A DNA stretch of 54,251 nt from Akkermansiaceae bacterium (lineage in GTDB: Bacteria; Verrucomicrobiota; Verrucomicrobiia; Verrucomicrobiales; Akkermansiaceae). The stretch lies in NCBI GenBank assembly GCA_028822935.1, contig JAPKCM010000031.1, positions 1 to 54,251 of the forward strand, written 5' to 3'. Shown in pieces: positions 36,728 to 44,910 of this stretch. Within the stretch, counting starts at the first letter, position 1. The number at the start of each line of letters is the position of its first letter. Below the pieces are notes generated by a model that was not told the origin of the DNA, did no database searches, and worked only from the letters and a program-made list of their open reading frames with translations. Made by a program: the position numbers and the translations under genes.

Positions 36728-38218
36728 CTAGCTGATGAGCTTCGCAAAGCGTTGATAAGCCTCTTCCCATTCCTTGGGATGCTGCGGCTCGAAGCGCTTC
36801 GTTTCGAACGAGTTGCGAATCAAAGCACGACCTTCCTCAAGACTGTCGAGACGACCACAGGCCACTTCTTGCATCATGAGGTTTCCCGCCGCGGTCGCTT
36901 CATAAGGACCGACGATGACAGGCCGGTTGATGCTACTCGAAATGCTCATATTGAGCTGATCGTTCTGACCTCCGCCTCCGATGATATGAAGAATGTCGAT
37001 GCGCCGGTCGATGAGCTTCTCGAGTCGATCAAGCACAAAGCGGACTTTGAGCGCGAGGCTATCCGTGACCAAGCGTAAGATCTGCGCCGGGCCCTCAGGG
37101 ACGATCTGCCCGGTCTCGCGACAGTATTCCGCAATCTCGGCCGGCATGTCACAGCGCCCCGCAAAACGAGGATCATCGGGATCGATAAATGACTGAAGAC
37201 GCTCGGCACTCGCTGCCATCTTGGCGAGATCGAAATAACCCCAATCGTTCCCTTCTTCTTTCCAAACGCGTCGGCACTCCTGGACCAGCCAGAGGCCATT
37301 GATATTTTTGAGCAAGCGGATGGTATCGAAGACGCCCACTTCGTTTGTGAAATTATATTCGCGAGCAAGCTGAGTAATGATCGGTTCATTAACCTCGACC
37401 CCGAGCAGAGACCAAGTGCCCGAGCTCAGGTAAGCAAAATTGGATCCAGATTCGGCAGGCACTGCCGCGACCGCCGAGGCGGTATCGTGGCTTCCAACAG
37501 TCACCACCTTTGTCTCTGAAGAGAGCCCCGTTTCCTCAACGATCTCGGGAAGAATCATCCCAAGAGTTGCGCCAGGCTCGACCAACTCGGGCGCAACATC
37601 GAGGGAGAGGCCAAGCGCTTTAAAAAGCGTCCGGGACCAATCCTTCTTCACCGGATCGTAGAATTGGGTCGTCGAGGCATTTGTGCGCTCGCACTTCGCC
37701 ACGCCCGTGAGACGATGCGCGATCAAATCTGGAATCATGAGAAATTGCTCCGCCTCCGGGAGGGCGGAATCAGGATCCTGCATCACAGCACCCATTTGCG
37801 TGAGAGTGTTGATGTCCATGAACTGAATGCCGGTTTTCTCAAAAATGGTGTCAGCGGAAACCCGCTGAAAGAGGTCATCCATCACACCCTTGTTACGGGG
37901 GTCACGATAGTGGCGAAGGTCGGCAAGGAGCTTTCCATCGGCATCTAAAAAGCCGTAGTCGACTCCCCATGTATCGACTCCAATCGAGAGAATTTTTTCC
38001 GCTCCATAACGATCCACCGAGAGCTTCAGCCCTTCAAGGATTCCTTTCCAGAGCGCTTCGAAGTCCCAAAAGAGCCCGCCTTCTTTTTCGATGGGAACAT
38101 TCTCAAAGCGATTGACCTCCTCAAGAGAGAGCTTCCCTTGACTCATGATGCCCGCGATGACACGCCCGCTTCCGGCTCCAAGATCAACGGCAAGATAGAT
38201 GGCTGAGGCGTCGGACAT
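36728..38218 (-). CDS. rhaB: Rhamnulokinase
   Basis: RhaB phosphorylates L-rhamnulose with ATP to L-rhamnulose 1-phosphate in the cytoplasm. The 496-residue length matches the FGGY family. The N-terminal phosphate-binding loop is LAVDLGAGSGRVIAG, followed by SIGVDTWGVDYGFLD (substrate region), LRHYRDPRN, the SHDTASAVAAVP block, YLSSGTWSLLG, and the C-terminal HIIGGGGQNDQLN and GPYEATAAGNLMMQ motifs. The acceptor-sugar neighbourhood DTWGVDYG is typical of rhamnulokinases rather than glycerol or xylulose kinases. It is the last gene of a tight operon, five bases after the Mqo-family gene, with the bifunctional aldolase/dehydrogenase upstream. Confidence 0.94.
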   Translation of the reverse strand: MSDASAIYLAVDLGAGSGRVIAGIMSQGKLSLEEVNRFENVPIEKEGGLFWDFEALWKGILEGLKLSVDRYGAEKILSIGVDTWGVDYGFLDADGKLLADLRHYRDPRNKGVMDDLFQRVSADTIFEKTGIQFMDINTLTQMGAVMQDPDSALPEAEQFLMIPDLIAHRLTGVAKCERTNASTTQFYDPVKKDWSRTLFKALGLSLDVAPELVEPGATLGMILPEIVEETGLSSETKVVTVGSHDTASAVAAVPAESGSNFAYLSSGTWSLLGVEVNEPIITQLAREYNFTNEVGVFDTIRLLKNINGLWLVQECRRVWKEEGNDWGYFDLAKMAASAERLQSFIDPDDPRFAGRCDMPAEIAEYCRETGQIVPEGPAQILRLVTDSLALKVRFVLDRLEKLIDRRIDILHIIGGGGQNDQLNMSISSSINRPVIVGPYEATAAGNLMMQEVACGRLDSLEEGRALIRNSFETKRFEPQHPKEWEEAYQRFAKLIS

Positions 38219-38223
38219 TTCTG

Positions 38224-39708
38224 TTAGAGGAGATTAAGGTCTGCCATCGCCTTTTGATGAATGTCGAGATAGCGGTCGCGGGCTGTGGAAGTCTTGAGGT
38301 CCTGATCCCAGTTGGGAATCATTTCGCTCATGCGAGATTTGCCTTCATCAGATTCGAGAAGCTCGGGCAGACAGCGCTGAATGCACTCCAGCATGACTTG
38401 CGTCGACACGGAAGCCCCTGGCGAAGCACCCAGGAGCGCGGAAATACTCAAATCTTCACTGGTCAGCACCTCAGTGCCGTAGTGGACGATTCCCGGTTCT
38501 TCTCCAGGCTCCTGCTTGATCGCCTGCACCCGAATGCCCGCATCGATGACCTCCCAGTCCTCGTCCTTGGCATCAGGATAGAAATTGTAGAGTTCCTGCA
38601 TGCGGGAGGACTTCGACTGAAGGCCCTGCTCCACGAGATACTTCACCAAGTCGAGGTTGTGAATCCCAACCCGCATCAGCGAGACGATGTTGCTGGGCCT
38701 CACCGACAAAGGAAGGTCGGTATGACTTCCACCATTATGGAGAAATTTTCCAGTCCAAGCCGCGAAGGGACCGAAGAGAAGGGAGCGCTCTCCATCGATT
38801 ACCCGGGTATCCAAATGCGGCACCGCCATCGTCGGGGCAGCCCCAAGAGCCTGTCCGTAAACCTTGGCAGTGTGCTTTTTCACGACCTCAGGATTTCTCG
38901 TGATCATCCACTGACCTCCGATTGGGAATCCTCCATAACCTTTGACTTCGGGAATCCCGGATTTTTGCAGCAAGGGAAGTGATCCACCGCCCGCACCGAT
39001 GAAAACGAAGGCCGCTTCGATCTGGCGCTTCTCGCGAGTTACCTCATCGCGCACCGTGACGAGCCAACCTTTCCCCTTCTTTTCCAAGTCGACAACGCGA
39101 TGCCCAAAGTGGGTCTCGCAATCATTCTGTTCGTCGAGCCACTCGCAGAAGTTGCGGGAAATCTCACCGAAATTGACATCGGTACCCCCGTCCATATGAG
39201 TCGCGGCGATCGGTTGATTTTCATCACGCCCATCAACAAGAAGCGGTGCCCAGGATTTGATTTCCTCCCGATCCGACGAATGCTTCATCGATTCAAAAAA
39301 GTGGTGCTTTTTCAAGCCCTCAAAGCGAGCCCGGAGATAAGGAAGCTGCTCCTCGGTGTGAACCAAGGAGATATGCGGGAGAGGATTGATGCACTCCTTC
39401 GTGTCCTTGATAATCCCCTTTCGCGCAGCGTAGGCCCAGAACTGGAGCGAGTGCTCAAAATCCTCGAAGACCGAGATCGCCTTGGAGACATCGACGCTTC
39501 CATCGGCCTCCTGGTGAGGCGTATAGGAAAGCTCACAGATTCCGGCGTGCCCGGTCCCGGCATTATTCCAACCATTCGATGCCTCCTGCGAAGGCCTATG
39601 AGACACTTCGAAAAGTTGAATCGAAACACCCGGCTGCAGCTCCTTGAGCATGGCCCCGAGAGTCGAGGACATGATACCGGAGCCGATGAGGAGAACGTCG
39701 GTTTTCAT
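38224..39708 (-). CDS. Mqo-family FAD oxidoreductase (malate or L-lactate:quinone)
   Basis: This 494-residue membrane-associated flavoprotein belongs to the malate:quinone oxidoreductase family. The FAD-binding DVLLIGSGIMSSTLGAML is at the N-terminus, followed by NGWNNAGTGHAGICELSYTP, DGGTDVNFGEISRNF, FIFIGAGGGSLPLLQ-type and GGFPIGGQWM segments, and the C-terminal LLGASPGASVS motif, all typical. In Staphylococcus aureus one member of this family (formerly Mqo2) is an L-lactate:quinone oxidoreductase (Lqo). Here the gene lies between rhamnose genes, 10 bases after the aldolase/L-lactaldehyde dehydrogenase, whose product would be L-lactate. Oxidation of that lactate to pyruvate is therefore the favoured inference; plain malate oxidation is the alternative. 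The ATG at 39708 fits the family start. Confidence 0.85.
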   Translation of the reverse strand: MKTDVLLIGSGIMSSTLGAMLKELQPGVSIQLFEVSHRPSQEASNGWNNAGTGHAGICELSYTPHQEADGSVDVSKAISVFEDFEHSLQFWAYAARKGIIKDTKECINPLPHISLVHTEEQLPYLRARFEGLKKHHFFESMKHSSDREEIKSWAPLLVDGRDENQPIAATHMDGGTDVNFGEISRNFCEWLDEQNDCETHFGHRVVDLEKKGKGWLVTVRDEVTREKRQIEAAFVFIGAGGGSLPLLQKSGIPEVKGYGGFPIGGQWMITRNPEVVKKHTAKVYGQALGAAPTMAVPHLDTRVIDGERSLLFGPFAAWTGKFLHNGGSHTDLPLSVRPSNIVSLMRVGIHNLDLVKYLVEQGLQSKSSRMQELYNFYPDAKDEDWEVIDAGIRVQAIKQEPGEEPGIVHYGTEVLTSEDLSISALLGASPGASVSTQVMLECIQRCLPELLESDEGKSRMSEMIPNWDQDLKTSTARDRYLDIHQKAMADLNLL

Positions 39709-39718
39709 ACGGTTCTTT

Positions 39719-41911
39719 TTAGCGAAGAAATGCTTCGTGAAGTCCTCCATCAACCGCCAGCACTTGGCCGGTAGTCTTCGATGATGTCTCACTCAGCATG
39801 AAGAGCATTCCGTTCGCCTGGTCTCGTGGGGTAATGGGAACCTTGGTGAGCGTGCGGTCTGCGTAGAACTGCGCAAGCTTGTCGCGGAGTTCCTCGGTGC
39901 CCTCGTCCTCGCTGAAGGGAAGTTCATACTTCGTCAGGGAAGCGATCACGCGGTCACGGGGAAACATTCCACTTCCCGCCACGACAGTTGCCGGAGCGAC
40001 GCCATTGACGCGCACGAGCGGCGATAGCTCGATCGCAAGTTCGCGGACAAGGTGGTTCGCGGCGGCCTTCGAAGTATCGTAAGCAACCGAACCTTTCTTG
40101 GAAACGACCGCGTTGGCACTGGTCGTCACAACCATCGAGCCACGGAGCCCCTGCTCATTCCAAATCTTAGCAGCTTCATCAGCGACAAAGTAAGGCCCGG
40201 CAACGTTGATCCCAAAGGTGAGTCCCCATTTATCATCAGGGATGTGACCGGTGCGATCGGGTGGCACGAAGATTCCCGCGGTCACGGCGATGTGATCGAT
40301 GCCACCGTATGCATAAACAACTTCAGCAAGCATTGCCTTGATCGCCTCACGATCGGTGACATTGCAGGCGAGCCCGATGGCATTTCCACAACCGGAAATC
40401 CCAGATCCCGCGACGCCGATACCCTGACCCACTTTGGCAATGAGTTCCTCGGCCGTAGCCTGAGCAGTTTCCTGATTCAGGTCGGCACAAACAACATGCG
40501 CGCCCTGATCAATCATGACGTGAGCCATCTCCTTGCCGATGCCACTTCCGGCACCAACGACGATGACCACCTTGCGGGCAAACTCGCGCTCGGGTGGCAT
40601 ACGCTGAAGCTTCGCTTCTTCAAGTGCCCAGTATTCGATGTCGAAAGCTTCTTTCTGGGGAAGACCAATATATTCATCGATCGCTTCCGCACCGCGCATC
40701 ACCGAAATGGCGCAGTTGTAAAACTCAGCGGTCACACGGGACTCACTCTTGTTCTTTCCGAAAGCCACCATCCCGATACCAGGAATCAGAACGACCGTTG
40801 GGTTCGAATTACGCATCGCGGGAGAATGAGTCTCCTTGTTCGCCTCGTAGTAAGTGGCATAGTCGGCGCGATATTTTTCAAGACCAGCGGTCAGTTTGGT
40901 GCGAAGCACATCGAGACCTTCGTTCTGAGGATCCCAATCGACATAAAGCGGCTTAATCTTGGTGCGAAGGAAGTGATCCGGGCAGGAAGTCCCTAGTTCA
41001 GCCAGTCTTTGAGCCGCGTTTGAATTCACGAACTCAAGAACCGTATCCGTCGTTTCCACCGTTGCAATGAAACGATTCTGCTGACTGACCTGACCACGAA
41101 GCCAAGGCAGGATTTCGGAAACGAGTTCGCCCTGCTTCTCATCGGAAAGTTTGGAGAACTTCTGTCCTTCAAAGGTCTCCGCTCCCTTATCGCGTTCCTC
41201 AATATAGCGACCCGCGCGTTCGATGAGCTCAAGAGTCAACTCGTAGCACTCCTTGTCGTCATCGGCCCAGTTGATGAGACCATGCTGGCCCATGTTGATT
41301 CCCTTGGCATTGGGATTCTTTTGGCAAACCTCCTGGAAAAGAAGACCGAGATCAAAGCCCGGGCGCTGCCAGGATGTGTAAACGATTTCGTCGCCAAAGA
41401 TCTCCTTCGTGATTGCCTCGGAATTCCTCGTCGCACAGAGCGAGATGAAGGAATTCGGGTGCATGTGATCAACATGCTTGCTTGGAATAAAGGAGTGCAG
41501 CGGGGTATCGATGGACGACGCCCGCGGGTTCAAGTTAAAGGTCGTATGACGATACATTCCCACCATGTCATCCTCAATCTGAGTCTTGACGCCGTTCGGG
41601 CTCGTGTCGTTGTAAATCTTTTGAAGGGCAATGAGTTTATCCTGATAAAGAGAGGAAAAGTTCTCAATTTTAGAAGTCCGGAGATCGCCACCGGATCCTT
41701 TGACCCAAAGCACTTCAGTTTCTTCACCGGTGAGCGGATCGACCTCCATCGCCTTGGAAGAAGTGTTTCCACCTCCCGTGTTGGTGATACGCTGGTCGGC
41801 GCCGAGGATATTGGAACGATAGGAAAGGCGCTCGACAGCGCTCATGGAAGCGACTTTTAAGTCGTCCCAGCCGTAGTTGACATGGCGGTATTCTGATGGG
41901 GTAAATGACAT
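39719..41911 (-). CDS. rhaEW: Bifunctional rhamnulose-1-phosphate aldolase/L-lactaldehyde dehydrogenase
   Basis: This 730-residue fusion combines a class II aldolase/adducin domain (about 1-430) with a short-chain dehydrogenase (about 445-730). The aldolase half shows ITNTGGGNTSSK, metal-binding HVDHMHPNSF and NMGQHGLINWADDD. The dehydrogenase half shows the nucleotide-binding VIVVGAGSGIGKEM near 450, HIAVTAGIF, and the catalytic YDTSKAA near 609. Such fusions split L-rhamnulose 1-phosphate into dihydroxyacetone phosphate and L-lactaldehyde and oxidise the latter to L-lactate; the Bacillus subtilis relative is RhaEW (YuxG). It heads the surviving operon rhaEW-mqo-rhaB. Forty-two bases upstream lies a probable rhaI tail, so the natural upstream gene and promoter may have been lost. 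Confidence 0.93.
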   Translation of the reverse strand: MSFTPSEYRHVNYGWDDLKVASMSAVERLSYRSNILGADQRITNTGGGNTSSKAMEVDPLTGEETEVLWVKGSGGDLRTSKIENFSSLYQDKLIALQKIYNDTSPNGVKTQIEDDMVGMYRHTTFNLNPRASSIDTPLHSFIPSKHVDHMHPNSFISLCATRNSEAITKEIFGDEIVYTSWQRPGFDLGLLFQEVCQKNPNAKGINMGQHGLINWADDDKECYELTLELIERAGRYIEERDKGAETFEGQKFSKLSDEKQGELVSEILPWLRGQVSQQNRFIATVETTDTVLEFVNSNAAQRLAELGTSCPDHFLRTKIKPLYVDWDPQNEGLDVLRTKLTAGLEKYRADYATYYEANKETHSPAMRNSNPTVVLIPGIGMVAFGKNKSESRVTAEFYNCAISVMRGAEAIDEYIGLPQKEAFDIEYWALEEAKLQRMPPEREFARKVVIVVGAGSGIGKEMAHVMIDQGAHVVCADLNQETAQATAEELIAKVGQGIGVAGSGISGCGNAIGLACNVTDREAIKAMLAEVVYAYGGIDHIAVTAGIFVPPDRTGHIPDDKWGLTFGINVAGPYFVADEAAKIWNEQGLRGSMVVTTSANAVVSKKGSVAYDTSKAAANHLVRELAIELSPLVRVNGVAPATVVAGSGMFPRDRVIASLTKYELPFSEDEGTEELRDKLAQFYADRTLTKVPITPRDQANGMLFMLSETSSKTTGQVLAVDGGLHEAFLR

Positions 41912-41953: not shown

Positions 41954-42043
41954 CTAGGCGTATCCGCCGCCGCCGGTAATTCCGAGCTCTTTGCGTCGGG
42001 CTTTTCGGTCGATTGAAATTTTTTCAAGATAGCCGCTTTCACG
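41954..42043 (-). pseudogene. Probable 3' tail of an L-rhamnose isomerase gene (rhaI)
   Basis: The minus strand encodes 29 residues with a natural stop: RESGYLEKISIDRKARRKEL and then GITGGGGYA. The xSGYxxxVxxxR pattern resembles the end of RhaI-type L-rhamnose isomerases, which finish with SGYRxxVxxxR. Position supports this: it is on the same strand as rhaEW, 42 bases upstream, where rhaI is expected. Immediately upstream, at 42044, the sequence switches to a DUF1549 fragment on the opposite strand, so the rest of the gene is missing at this place. Confidence 0.5.
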
Positions 42044-42930
42044 GCCTGGCCCTATCGTGACTGGGTCGTGAAGGCCTTCCAGAACGACATGCCCTACGAC
42101 CAATTCGTCACCTGGAACATCGCCGGCGACCTCCTTCCCAATGCCAACCAAGAGCAGAAACTCGCCGCCGCTTTCAACCGCTTCAACCGCATGACGAACG
42201 AAGGCGGCTCCACCGCGCTTGAGTTCCGCGTCGATGGCGTCGCCGACCGTGTCAATACCGTGGGCACTTCCATCCTCGGCCTCACCTTTGAGTGCGCAAA
42301 ATGCCACGATCATAAATACGATTCCATCCTCACGAAGTGACTACTACCAGCTCTACGCCTTCTTCAATTCTATCAACGAAGACGGCCTCTACATCCACCA
42401 AAAAATCTCCCCGCCACCCAGCGTCCTTCCTTCCCACATCAAAGCAGGAAGCCAATCTCGCAAAACACCAGATACCCATCGACGAACTCGAGAAACAACT
42501 CGCGCAAATCGTCGCACAAGCCAATCCAGCCTTCCAGGAATGGAAATCTAGATTAACGCCTGAGTCACCACTCATCATGGCAGACCAAACGGCCCTCGTT
42601 GACTTCAACAAATCGAACAAGAAGCCTCTCGAATCCCGAATCCAAGCGAAGGACGCTAAGCCAATCTCCATTTCGCTCAAGACTCCCAACTATGTCGAGG
42701 GCTCTCTTCGAAGACTTCTCCACACGCGGATGGGCTTGGGTCTTCCTAAATTCCTGGTCTATCGACTTCGGAAACTGCCTCCTCGTCAATGAGGCCTTCG
42801 TCTCATATTTGAGAATTCCTTGGTGGATCGCACGTTTTGAAGTTCCAGCGAAAGAACCTATGAATCCTGGGATGCCTCATCTTGCTGTTGACGAAGAAGG
42901 AGGCCTACACGCCTAATCCGACACACAACC
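42044..42930 (+). pseudogene. Broken DUF1549/DUF1553 gene
   Basis: The frame from about 42045 gives AWPYRDWVVKAFQNDMPYDQ, NIAGDLLPNANQEQKLAAAF, NRMTNEGGS and CAKCHDHKYDSI, the middle of a DUF1549 domain, then hits a stop at 42338. The next homologous words (YYQLYAFFNSINEDGLY) are in another frame, and a third frame continues with KHQIPIDELEKQLAQIVAQ and EWKSRLTPE. There is no start or signal peptide and no DUF1553 end, so at least two frameshifts and both termini are lost. It begins exactly where the rhaI tail on the other strand stops. Beyond about 42780 the similarity fades and the right boundary is approximate. Confidence 0.8.
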
Positions 42931-43110: not shown

Positions 43111-44910
43111 ATGTCCGTCGAACTCACCCGTAACTTCTCCATCATCGCCCACATCGATCATGGCAAAACGACCCTGTCCGATCGCCTCATGGAAGAAACA
43201 CAGACGATCACCCAGCGCGAGTCCCAGGCCCAGCACCTCGACTCCATGGACCTCGAGCGCGAAAAAGGAATTACCATCAAATCCCACCCCGTCACCCTTG
43301 CCTTCAAGTCCAAGGACGGGAAGACCTACAAGCTCAACCTCCTCGACACGCCCGGGCACGTCGACTTCTCCTACGAGGTCTCCCGCTCCCTCGCCGCGTG
43401 CGAAGGCGCCATCCTCATCATCGATGCCGCCCAAGGCGTCGAAGCCCAGACCATGGCCAACGTGAACCTCGCCATGGAGCAGGAACTCGCCATCGTCCCC
43501 GTCCTCAATAAAATCGACCTCCCCGCCGCCGACATCCCACGCTGCCGTAAGCAGCTCGAGGAAATCCTCGCGATCCCCGGAGAACACGCCATCCCCGCCT
43601 CCGCCAAGATGGGCATCGGCATCCAAGAGATCCTCGAAGCCGTCGTCGAACTCGTCCCCCCACCCGTCGAAAACCCCGACGGTCTCCTCCGCGCTTCCGT
43701 CTTCGATTCCCTTTACGATCAATTTCGCGGCGTTATTTCCTACGTCCGCATCGTTTCCGGTGAGGTGAAAAAAGGCGATAAAATTAAGCTCTTCCACACT
43801 CCCACGAACTACGAGATCAAGGAGACCGGCATCTTCACCCCTAAGATGCAAAAAACCGAAGGCCTCAAAACCGGAGACGTCGGCTACATCATCGCCAACA
43901 TGAAGTCTTCCGCCGAAGTTAAAATCGGCGACACCATCACCCACAAGGAAAAACCCTGCCTCGAGCCCCTTCCCGGATTCAAAGAAATTCGCCCCATGGT
44001 CTTCTCCGGCATCTACCCCATCGACACCTCCGACTACGAGGCCCTCAAAGTCGCCATGGGCAAACTTCAGATCAACGACGCCGCCTTCACCTTCCAGACT
44101 GAATCTTCCACCGCGCTCGGCTTCGGCTTCCGCTGCGGCTTCCTCGGCCTCCTCCACATGGAAATCATCCAGGAACGACTCCGCCGCGAGTTCGACATGG
44201 ACGTCATCTCCACCTACCCCTCTGTCATTTACGAGGTCACCAAGACCGACGGCGAAGAACTCATCATCGACAACCCCTCCTACCTCCCCGAAGCCCAGAC
44301 CATCGAAGAAATCTGCGAACCCATCGTCCGCATCTTCATTATGGTTCCCGGAGACTACATCGGAGACGTTATGAAGCTCATCATGGAAAAGCGAGGCGAA
44401 CTCGAAAACACCGAGACAATCGACGAATTCCGCGTCATGCTCACGGCCAAAGTTCCTCTCGCCGACATCCTCGTCGACTTCAACGACCGCCTCAAATCCA
44501 TGACCAAAGGCTACGGCTCCATGGATTATGAGCACGCCGGTTACCGTGCCGCCAACATGGTCAAAATGGACATGCTCATCGCCGGCGAACCCGTCGAAGC
44601 CTTCTCCACCATCGTCCACCGCGACAAAGCAATCGGCCGAGGCCGCGATCTCGCCGCCAAGCTCAAGGAAGTCATCCCCACCCAGATGTTCGTCGTCGCC
44701 ATCCAGGCCGCCATCGGAGGAAACATCATCGCAAGAGAAACCATCTCCGCGATGCGTAAAAACGTCACCGCTAAATGCTACGGCGGCGACATCTCCCGAA
44801 AGCGCAAGCTCCTCGAGAAGCAGAAAAAGGGTAAGGCCAAGATGAAGCAATTCGGCAAAGTCAACATCCCCCAAGACGCCTTCATCAAGGTCCTAAAATC
44901 GGGAGATTGA
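43111..44910 (+). CDS. lepA: Translation elongation factor 4 (LepA)
   Basis: LepA/EF4 is a ribosome-dependent GTPase related to EF-G that assists translation initiation or back-translocation. At 599 residues it is full length. G motifs are IIAHIDHGKTTLSDRL (G1), REKGITIKS (G2), LLDTPGHVDFSYEV (G3), VLNKIDLPAAD (G4) and a SAKMGIG (G5). EF-G-like domains follow, then the LepA-specific C-terminal domain with KAIGRGRDLAAKLKE, GGNIIARETISAMRKNVTAK and CYGGDISRKRKLLEKQKKGK. The ATG at 43111 gives the canonical start; an ATG ten codons earlier overlaps the upstream repeat. No Shine-Dalgarno sequence precedes it. It stands alone between remnants. Confidence 0.97.
   Translation: MSVELTRNFSIIAHIDHGKTTLSDRLMEETQTITQRESQAQHLDSMDLEREKGITIKSHPVTLAFKSKDGKTYKLNLLDTPGHVDFSYEVSRSLAACEGAILIIDAAQGVEAQTMANVNLAMEQELAIVPVLNKIDLPAADIPRCRKQLEEILAIPGEHAIPASAKMGIGIQEILEAVVELVPPPVENPDGLLRASVFDSLYDQFRGVISYVRIVSGEVKKGDKIKLFHTPTNYEIKETGIFTPKMQKTEGLKTGDVGYIIANMKSSAEVKIGDTITHKEKPCLEPLPGFKEIRPMVFSGIYPIDTSDYEALKVAMGKLQINDAAFTFQTESSTALGFGFRCGFLGLLHMEIIQERLRREFDMDVISTYPSVIYEVTKTDGEELIIDNPSYLPEAQTIEEICEPIVRIFIMVPGDYIGDVMKLIMEKRGELENTETIDEFRVMLTAKVPLADILVDFNDRLKSMTKGYGSMDYEHAGYRAANMVKMDMLIAGEPVEAFSTIVHRDKAIGRGRDLAAKLKEVIPTQMFVVAIQAAIGGNIIARETISAMRKNVTAKCYGGDISRKRKLLEKQKKGKAKMKQFGKVNIPQDAFIKVLKSGD

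What the first reader, a model, noticed from the sequence alone, without database searches (positions are those of the whole stretch)
41954..42060. Rhamnose operon truncated at a sharp junction with a DUF1549 fragment
The minus strand retains 29 codons of a probable L-rhamnose isomerase tail upstream of rhaEW. At 42044 this switches to the middle of a DUF1549 domain on the plus strand. The first gene and the natural promoter of the operon are therefore gone here. This is either a real rearrangement that rewired expression or an assembly join.
Basis: partly seen in the sequence, partly recalled or inferred. Interest (0 to 1): 0.52.

Follow-up and report, generated by a model that had tools for sequence, protein, structure and literature searches.

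The report
Rhamnose operon missing its isomerase gene
In a group of uncultured, apparently marine bacteria the gene for the first enzyme of rhamnose breakdown has been deleted several separate times, leaving small stumps like this one, while the genes for the later steps stay intact and under selection, so something other than the usual enzyme probably feeds them now.

Summary
Window 41954-42043 (minus) is the last 29 codons of an L-rhamnose isomerase gene (rhaI), joined at 42044-42046 to the middle of a DUF1549 gene that lacks both ends and is frameshifted. No other rhaI and no rhaA was found in this 96%-complete draft genome. Relatives answer 'rearrangement or assembly join'. Of 16 RhaEW-bearing genomes of the genus, 5 have intact rhaI beside rhaEW and a sixth is open to its contig end. 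Three others carry different internal rhaI deletions (861, 895, 898 nt), each beside an intact sister species. Four share one older loss with only a decayed rhaI tail; two cannot be judged. With the window that makes at least five separate losses. Permease and LacI genes beside rhaI erode too, but RhaEW, an Mqo-family oxidoreductase and RhaB stay intact (dN/dS 0.06-0.12 inside the rhaI-less clade). The stump is therefore most likely a fossil of a recurrent loss of the uptake/isomerase half of the operon, not a chimera. What now feeds the kinase and aldolase is unknown: neither RhaA nor a fucose isomerase explains it across the genus. RhaEW genomes without RhaI or RhaA also occur elsewhere (12 of 36 checked).

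The parts
41954..42043 (-). 3' stump of rhaI (L-rhamnose isomerase, TIGR02635 type): last 29 codons and stop
   Evidence: 79% aa identity to the G020 RhaI tail; DNA score 71 vs at most 30 in 300 shuffles; same place relative to rhaEW as in intact relatives
42044..42046 (.). junction between the rhaI stump and the DUF1549 relic
   Evidence: rhaI DNA similarity ends and DUF1549 similarity begins here; no N in the 500 bases before rhaEW
42044..42434 (+). relic of a DUF1549 (PSCyt2) gene: begins mid-domain, frameshift near 42338, 3' part lost or unrecognisable
   Evidence: PF07583 98-194/209; blastx to seven own DUF1549 proteins, five of them continuing in a second frame
41954..42313 (-). 119-codon open frame that runs from antisense DUF1549 into the rhaI stump; probably incidental
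   Evidence: ORF list; no Pfam or NCBIfam match
39719..41911 (-). rhaEW: bifunctional rhamnulose-1-phosphate aldolase / L-lactaldehyde dehydrogenase, intact
   Evidence: NF006189 1063.8 bits (cut-off 634), TIGR02632 977.1 bits (cut-off 567.75)
38224..39708 (-). Mqo-family quinone oxidoreductase (start taken at the MKTDV... ATG used by relatives); inferred to oxidise the L-lactate made by RhaEW
   Evidence: TIGR01320 604.9 bits, cut-off 549.95; near rhaEW in 13 of 16 RhaEW genomes; start compared
36728..38218 (-). rhaB: rhamnulokinase, intact
   Evidence: TIGR02627 444 bits, below its curated cut-off of 527.95; FGGY_N and FGGY_C
43111..44910 (+). lepA, the next intact gene beyond the relic
   Evidence: matches of 89-96% identity over its length in 15 other genus members; its neighbours vary among the 15 genus lepA loci compared

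Best explanation
The 29 codons are a stump left by one of at least five independent losses of rhaI in this genus. The ancestral cluster was permease (NCS1-like) - LacI - rhaI - rhaEW - mqo - rhaB. In several lineages the upstream half (permease, LacI, rhaI) was eroded by deletions, three of them inside rhaI with about 1-4 matching bases at the ends. In this genome the erosion also brought in a decayed DUF1549 piece and a new neighbour (lepA). I infer that the rhaI end next to rhaEW survives because larger deletions would have damaged the selected rhaEW start, not because the stump is useful: in the oldest loss it has decayed almost beyond recognition. The lower half (RhaB kinase, RhaEW aldolase/dehydrogenase, Mqo-family oxidoreductase) is still selected, so it probably receives a 6-deoxyketose or a later intermediate from a source other than RhaI. 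Shown: stump identity, recurrent deletions, separate origins on the tree, purifying selection on the rest. Inferred: permease, LacI and rhaI eroding as one functional module, Mqo acting on L-lactate, an alternative input.
For: Stump identity. Only rhaI trace found in its genome. Intact rhaI in G020, G021, G026, G008, G017, with G006 open to the contig end; pieces in G003, G004, G005 and G000. Internal deletions of 895, 898 and 861 nt. Decayed tail in G013, G014, G016, G025 by end-anchored alignment to their nearest intact relative G021: z 3.6-5.4, 0 of 500 shuffles each; these four share their upstream region. Tree: the four genomes with pieces need four separate changes, all forced by supported branches. 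Permease or LacI broken in G003, G004, G005 and not found in G000 or, within the fetched upstream stretches, in the clade. dN/dS in the rhaI-less clade 0.057-0.065 rhaEW (4 pairs), 0.085-0.112 mqo (4 pairs), 0.098-0.119 rhaB (3 pairs); no in-frame stop in the compared parts of rhaEW or rhaB, and those in mqo lie before its start. No RhaA match in 26 of 27 genus genomes; the one hit, in G006, lies on its rhaI. The DUF1549 piece is itself decayed.
Against: The three deletions are close in size (861-898 nt), which is unexplained. G005 has 5 ambiguous bases in the 500 nt before rhaEW. The decayed tail in the clade is not seen by local alignment and is weaker against other references (z 2.9-4.1 against G020, -0.3 to 2.4 against G008). 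G003 split from G021 so recently that selection after its loss can hardly be measured. In sister comparisons no overall slackening of selection is seen, but power is low. An unrecognised isomerase could exist, so 'isomerase lost' means RhaI, RhaA and FucI types only. Permease and LacI were sought in G000 by DNA in the whole genome and by protein only in the 12 kb upstream.
Confidence: 0.8

Rival explanations
1. Assembly artefact: the contig joins an rhaI end to an unrelated DUF1549 piece, and the real genome has an intact operon.
For: Draft assembly of 156 contigs with many DUF1549-like stretches (19 DNA matches besides the window's own); no reads were seen.
Against: No other rhaI found in 4.59 Mb; three other species carry different rhaI deletions and four share an older one at the same spot; the DUF1549 piece is frameshifted and lacks both ends, whereas I would expect a repeat-driven chimera to join live copies.
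Confidence: 0.08
2. Plain pathway decay: the whole rhamnose pathway has lost its use, rhaI and its neighbours went first, and rhaEW, mqo and rhaB are only lagging behind.
For: Graded erosion of permease, LacI and rhaI; 11 of 27 genus members have no RhaEW, only matches of E 2e-14 or weaker; G004 rhaB (p 0.009) and G003 mqo (p 0.03) each show an excess of amino-acid changes with one of three outgroups.
Against: In the clade that lost rhaI before it split, dS is about 0.35-0.6 yet dN/dS stays 0.06-0.12, with no stops in the compared parts of rhaEW or rhaB; the excesses are not significant with the other two outgroups.
Confidence: 0.25
3. Gene displacement in this genome: a fucose-isomerase-like protein on contig C116 has taken over the RhaI step.
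For: G000:C116 encodes a 535-aa protein with PF02952; relatives 58-60% identical over about 530 residues lie upstream of rhaEW, one ORF between, in two Verrucomicrobia MAGs (L093, L096), and L093 has a rhamnulokinase-like gene after rhaEW.
Against: The other 26 genus members show no PF02952; the G000 gene lies beside a ribulokinase and near a sodium symporter, which suggests a pentose pathway of its own.
Confidence: 0.12

Closest known systems
RhaEW-type L-rhamnose catabolic operon (Rodionova et al. 2013, PMC3870299; passages seen)
   Same: RhaB and the bifunctional RhaEW, with an L-lactate-oxidising step proposed as an extension to pyruvate (there lldD/lldEFG, here an Mqo-family gene).
   Different: The passages describe RhaA or RhaI as the isomerase across the studied genomes and RhaEW as always encoded in rha loci; here the isomerase is reduced to a stump and neither type is found in the genome.
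RhaI, L-rhamnose isomerase of the TIGR02635 type
   Same: The stump aligns with the C-terminal end of a genus RhaI that scores 480 bits with TIGR02635 (below its curated cut-off of 531).
   Different: Only 29 of about 400 residues remain, so there is no catalytic part.
RhaEW operons with FucI and a rhamnulokinase-like kinase (L083, L079), by my reading L-fucose operons
   Same: Same kinase and RhaEW genes, so the lower half also occurs with a fucose isomerase.
   Different: No FucI lies near rhaEW here, and 26 of 27 genus members show no PF02952 domain.
Methyl-pentose-using marine Verrucomicrobiota (PMC8857213; passages seen)
   Same: Marine Verrucomicrobiota with fucose and rhamnose pathways.
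   Different: Those are described with isomerases and a microcompartment carrying an AraD-like aldolase; the RhaEW route and rhaI stumps were not in the passages seen.

Membership tests
RhaEW-type L-rhamnose operon | bifunctional RhaEW over curated cut-offs | tested here: met
   NF006189 and TIGR02632 over cut-off
RhaEW-type L-rhamnose operon | rhamnulokinase RhaB in the same operon | tested here: met
   TIGR02627 is the best model, 444 bits, though under its curated cut-off of 527.95
RhaEW-type L-rhamnose operon | an L-rhamnose isomerase (RhaI or RhaA) in the genome | tested here: not met
   only the 29-codon stump
RhaEW-type L-rhamnose operon | growth on L-rhamnose | not testable with these tools
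   no culture data
RhaI (TIGR02635) | catalytic domain | tested here: not met
   only the C-terminal 29 residues remain
DUF1549 (PF07583) gene | complete domain in one open frame | tested here: not met
   starts at profile position 98, then a frameshift near 42338
L-fucose operon with RhaEW | FucI beside rhaEW | tested here: not met
   the genome's only PF02952 match is on another contig, beside a ribulokinase

The most novel reading that the evidence does not exclude
The retained RhaB-RhaEW-Mqo module is fed by an isomerase of a family not yet known to make L-rhamnulose or L-fuculose, or by an imported ketose or 6-deoxy alditol, so that RhaI became dispensable repeatedly. The same unknown source would serve other RhaEW-bearing genomes that lack true RhaI and RhaA (12 of 36 examined). 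Two of those 12 have FucI beside rhaEW, and six show weak RhaI-profile matches (E 2e-4 to 6e-11) that could be other sugar isomerases and are candidates.
Probability: 0.3. Interest if true: 0.6.

Novelty: new variant of a known kind. Interest (0 to 1): 0.42.

Why it matters
Losing the first enzyme of a sugar pathway over and over while keeping the rest under selection suggests that the textbook input has been swapped. It marks a concrete gap (which enzyme or substrate feeds RhaB and RhaEW) in bacteria whose phylum includes known consumers of algal deoxysugars. It also warns that calling 'rhamnose utilisation' from rhaB and rhaEW alone may be wrong for these genomes. As a methods point, an apparent assembly break turned out to be one of a series of independent deletions visible only by comparing sister species.

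Tried and rejected
Profile search of the 29-residue tail and a PDB search found nothing; too short in my judgement, so not used as evidence against. RhaA as replacement: rejected. FucI as a genus-wide replacement: rejected. The missing permease/LacI/rhaI 5' half beside parC, where several relatives carry it: G000 has parC on contig C61 and the 13 kb after it hold other genes. The lepA side as an ancestral DUF1549 neighbourhood: no ORF of at least 100 codons in the 15 genus lepA loci compared matched the DUF1549 piece outside the window itself. A promoter in the new upstream region: none found, uninformative. Slackened selection in lineages with rhaI pieces: not significant overall. A DNA tree of rhaEW failed to display because of a label error; only the protein tree is used. 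Local alignment of the tail in the rhaI-less clade was not significant; the end-anchored alignment was, against G021 and mostly against G020 but not against G008, with G010 as a negative case (z -0.7 to 2.1).

Rows set aside: G019 (contig begins inside rhaEW) and G010 (1.8 kb upstream held, no relic seen) are not counted as independent losses, though labelled both 'absent'. Of the 80 RhaEW loci, the genomes of 36 were given. The 12 with neither isomerase have no completeness values; one of them is a named strain (L077). 'True' RhaI or RhaA there means E below 1e-100.

Full report
What was checked. Window 41954-42043 on the minus strand reads RESGYLEKISIDRKARRKELGITGGGGYA and stop. In the same-genus genome G020 the full RhaI next to rhaEW ends ...FRESGYLEKISADRKARRKELGVVSTIGYA. 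Over the 29 residues identity is 79%, and the DNA match scores 71 against a maximum of 30 in 300 shuffles. That G020 protein scores 480 bits with TIGR02635, L-rhamnose isomerase (under the curated cut-off of 531). The stump's stop lies 42 nt before rhaEW; five intact relatives have 33-41 nt (from coordinates). On the other side of 42044-42046 the plus strand reads the second half of a DUF1549 domain (PF07583, 98-194 of 209). Its frame shifts near 42338 and similarity to the genome's own DUF1549 proteins ends by about 42434, so it is a relic lacking both ends.

Is there another rhaI? The genome (4.59 Mb, 156 contigs, 96.1% complete) has no match to TIGR02635 or PF06134. With the G020 RhaI as query it gives one place, the stump, extended by chance-level similarity into antisense DUF1549 (41960-42157). 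A 9.9-kb DNA query from G021 covering parC to rhaI finds only parC, on contig C61, with other genes in the 13 kb after it. So the permease, LacI and rhaI genes that lie beyond parC in G021 were not found there. By protein, permease and LacI were sought only in the 12 kb upstream of rhaEW in the window (none).

The genus. RhaEW is present in 16 of 27 genus genomes (counting best matches with E reported as 0; in the other 11 the best match is 2e-14 or weaker). RhaI is found in 10 of 27, all among the 16. Five are full-length (G020, G021, G026, G008, G017) and G006 is open to its contig end. Four are pieces, in G021 RhaI numbering: G003 residues 1-89, G004 1-76, G005 1-56 and 334-400, and G000, the window, 372-400. 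Comparing each of the first three with an intact sister gives internal deletions of 895 nt (G003 against G021), 898 nt (G004 against G026) and 861 nt (G005 against G008 and G017), with about 3, 1 and 4 matching bases at the ends; all keep the very end of rhaI. In G013, G014, G016 and G025 a DUF3592 gene is followed directly by rhaEW and the sequence before rhaEW is shared among them (over about 170-430 nt in the five pairs aligned). An end-anchored alignment still recognises a decayed rhaI tail there: against G021, their nearest intact relative, z 3.6-5.4 and 0 of 500 shuffles each; against G020 z 2.9-4.1; against G008 -0.3 to 2.4; the negative case G010 gives 0.4, 2.1 and -0.7. The remaining two of the 16, G010 and G019, cannot be judged. 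No N lies in the 500 bases before rhaEW in G000, G003, G004, G013, G014, G016 or G025; G005 has five.

Separate origins. In the RhaEW protein tree G003 pairs with intact G021 (100/99), G004 with intact G026 (100/99), G005 falls with intact G008 and G017 (100/100), and G000 hangs from the same open fork as intact G020. The four genomes with pieces need four changes, all forced by supported branches, and the clade of G013, G014, G016, G025 (and G019, not judged locally) is a fifth. G050, outside the genus, has rhaI directly before rhaEW, so presence is taken as ancestral.

What else went and what stayed. In G020, G021, G008 and G017 the order is permease (minus) / LacI - rhaI - rhaEW - mqo - rhaB. 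The permease of G021 has no Pfam match and a weak one to cytosine permease, hence 'NCS1-like'. G026 has an intact rhaI but only residues 151-346 of LacI and no permease hit. G004 has LacI but a broken permease. G003 has a frameshifted LacI piece and no permease hit. G005 has small pieces of both. In G000 and in the fetched upstream stretches of the clade neither is found. In contrast the compared parts of rhaEW (16 genomes) and rhaB (14 genomes) hold no in-frame stop, and the single stops seen in five mqo rows lie before the shared start codon. mqo is found in 13 of 16; in G004 and G026 rhaB follows rhaEW directly and in G006 a partial rhaB does. Within the rhaI-less clade dN/dS is 0.057-0.065 for rhaEW (4 pairs), 0.085-0.112 for mqo (4 pairs) and 0.098-0.119 for rhaB (3 pairs) at dS about 0.35-0.6. 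G025's rhaEW has 388 N, so its first part was not used. Lineage-by-lineage counts in sister pairs show no overall excess of amino-acid changes after the loss; G004 rhaB and G003 mqo do with one of three outgroups each.

How it probably works. RhaEW splits L-rhamnulose-1-phosphate into DHAP and L-lactaldehyde and oxidises the latter to L-lactate (shown for Chloroflexus and, weakly, Bacillus enzymes in PMC3870299, passages seen). The Mqo-family gene scores over the malate:quinone cut-off, but its place suggests L-lactate oxidation to pyruvate; PMC3870299 proposes the same extension with lldD and lldEFG. With no RhaI or RhaA the usual substrate cannot be made from L-rhamnose by an enzyme known to me. 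FucI-type isomerases lie beside RhaEW elsewhere (L079, L083, L100; a distant FucI-like family in L093 and L096), yet PF02952 is matched in only 1 of 27 genus genomes, this one, beside a ribulokinase. The input to the retained module is therefore open.

Wider control. Of 80 RhaEW loci (at least three of them, L039-L041, from this genus), 11 have RhaI and 15 RhaA within the fetched stretch. Of 36 of those genomes searched whole, 7 have RhaI and 17 RhaA at E below 1e-100, and 12 have neither; 6 of the 12 have weak RhaI-profile matches (E 2e-4 to 6e-11) that may be other sugar isomerases. RhaEW genomes without a known isomerase are thus not confined to this genus, but completeness is unknown for them.

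Where it comes from. Contig lengths equate G017, G014 and G026 with MAG records NHEN01000188 (TMED86), CASICJ010000011 (FRAM) and CALFSW010000050; 'marine Verrucomicrobiales' is my reading of those titles, not a placement of the window.

Literature. Searches for rhamnose/RhaI/RhaEW/lactaldehyde, rhamnose isomerase, Verrucomicrobia and rhamnulokinase and fucose isomerase, rhamnose and gene loss with Verrucomicrobia listed (top 12 of 183, 15 of 40, 10 of 17) no title or abstract start on repeated rhaI loss. The library holds open-licence papers only, so this is weak evidence of novelty.

Verdict. It is one of a series of independent losses of the uptake/isomerase half of a rhamnose operon. The event itself is ordinary deletion; its repetition with the lower half kept under selection is the part worth attention.

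Noticed in passing
window 38224-39708: An Mqo-family quinone oxidoreductase sits between rhaEW and rhaB here; 13 of 16 RhaEW genomes of the genus hold it near rhaEW. Probably an L-lactate oxidation step, though the curated model over its cut-off says malate.
   Followed up: partly
G000:C116 54000-70593 (L209): Cluster with a sodium symporter, ribulokinase, 535-aa FucI-like protein and a Gfo/Idh-like protein (last name recalled); the FucI-like family is 58-60% identical to proteins upstream of rhaEW in L093 and L096 and gave no NCBIfam match.
   Followed up: partly
G003, G004, G005 (L127, L124, L122): The three rhaI deletions are nearly equal in size (895, 898, 861 nt) though separate in origin; not explained.
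   Followed up: no
G026 (L119, L010): G026 keeps an intact-looking rhaI, but its last residues (...RKERRKKKR) differ from the relatives as if frameshifted, and its LacI match lacks the DNA-binding part; possibly an early stage of the same loss.
   Followed up: no
L077 (Neiella litorisoli), L092 (Pirellulaceae MAG), L052, L060: RhaEW genes in genomes with neither true RhaI nor RhaA, and with no rhaB match within the fetched stretch.
   Followed up: no
L066 (G074) and L074 (G078): Two genomes without true RhaI or RhaA hold a weak RhaI-profile match in a 352-residue frame (E 6e-11 and 3e-10); candidates for another isomerase.
   Followed up: no
lepA loci: window and L177-L190: Among 15 genus lepA loci the neighbours differ widely; G002, G005, G008 and G017 share some, which points to frequent rearrangement.
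   Followed up: no
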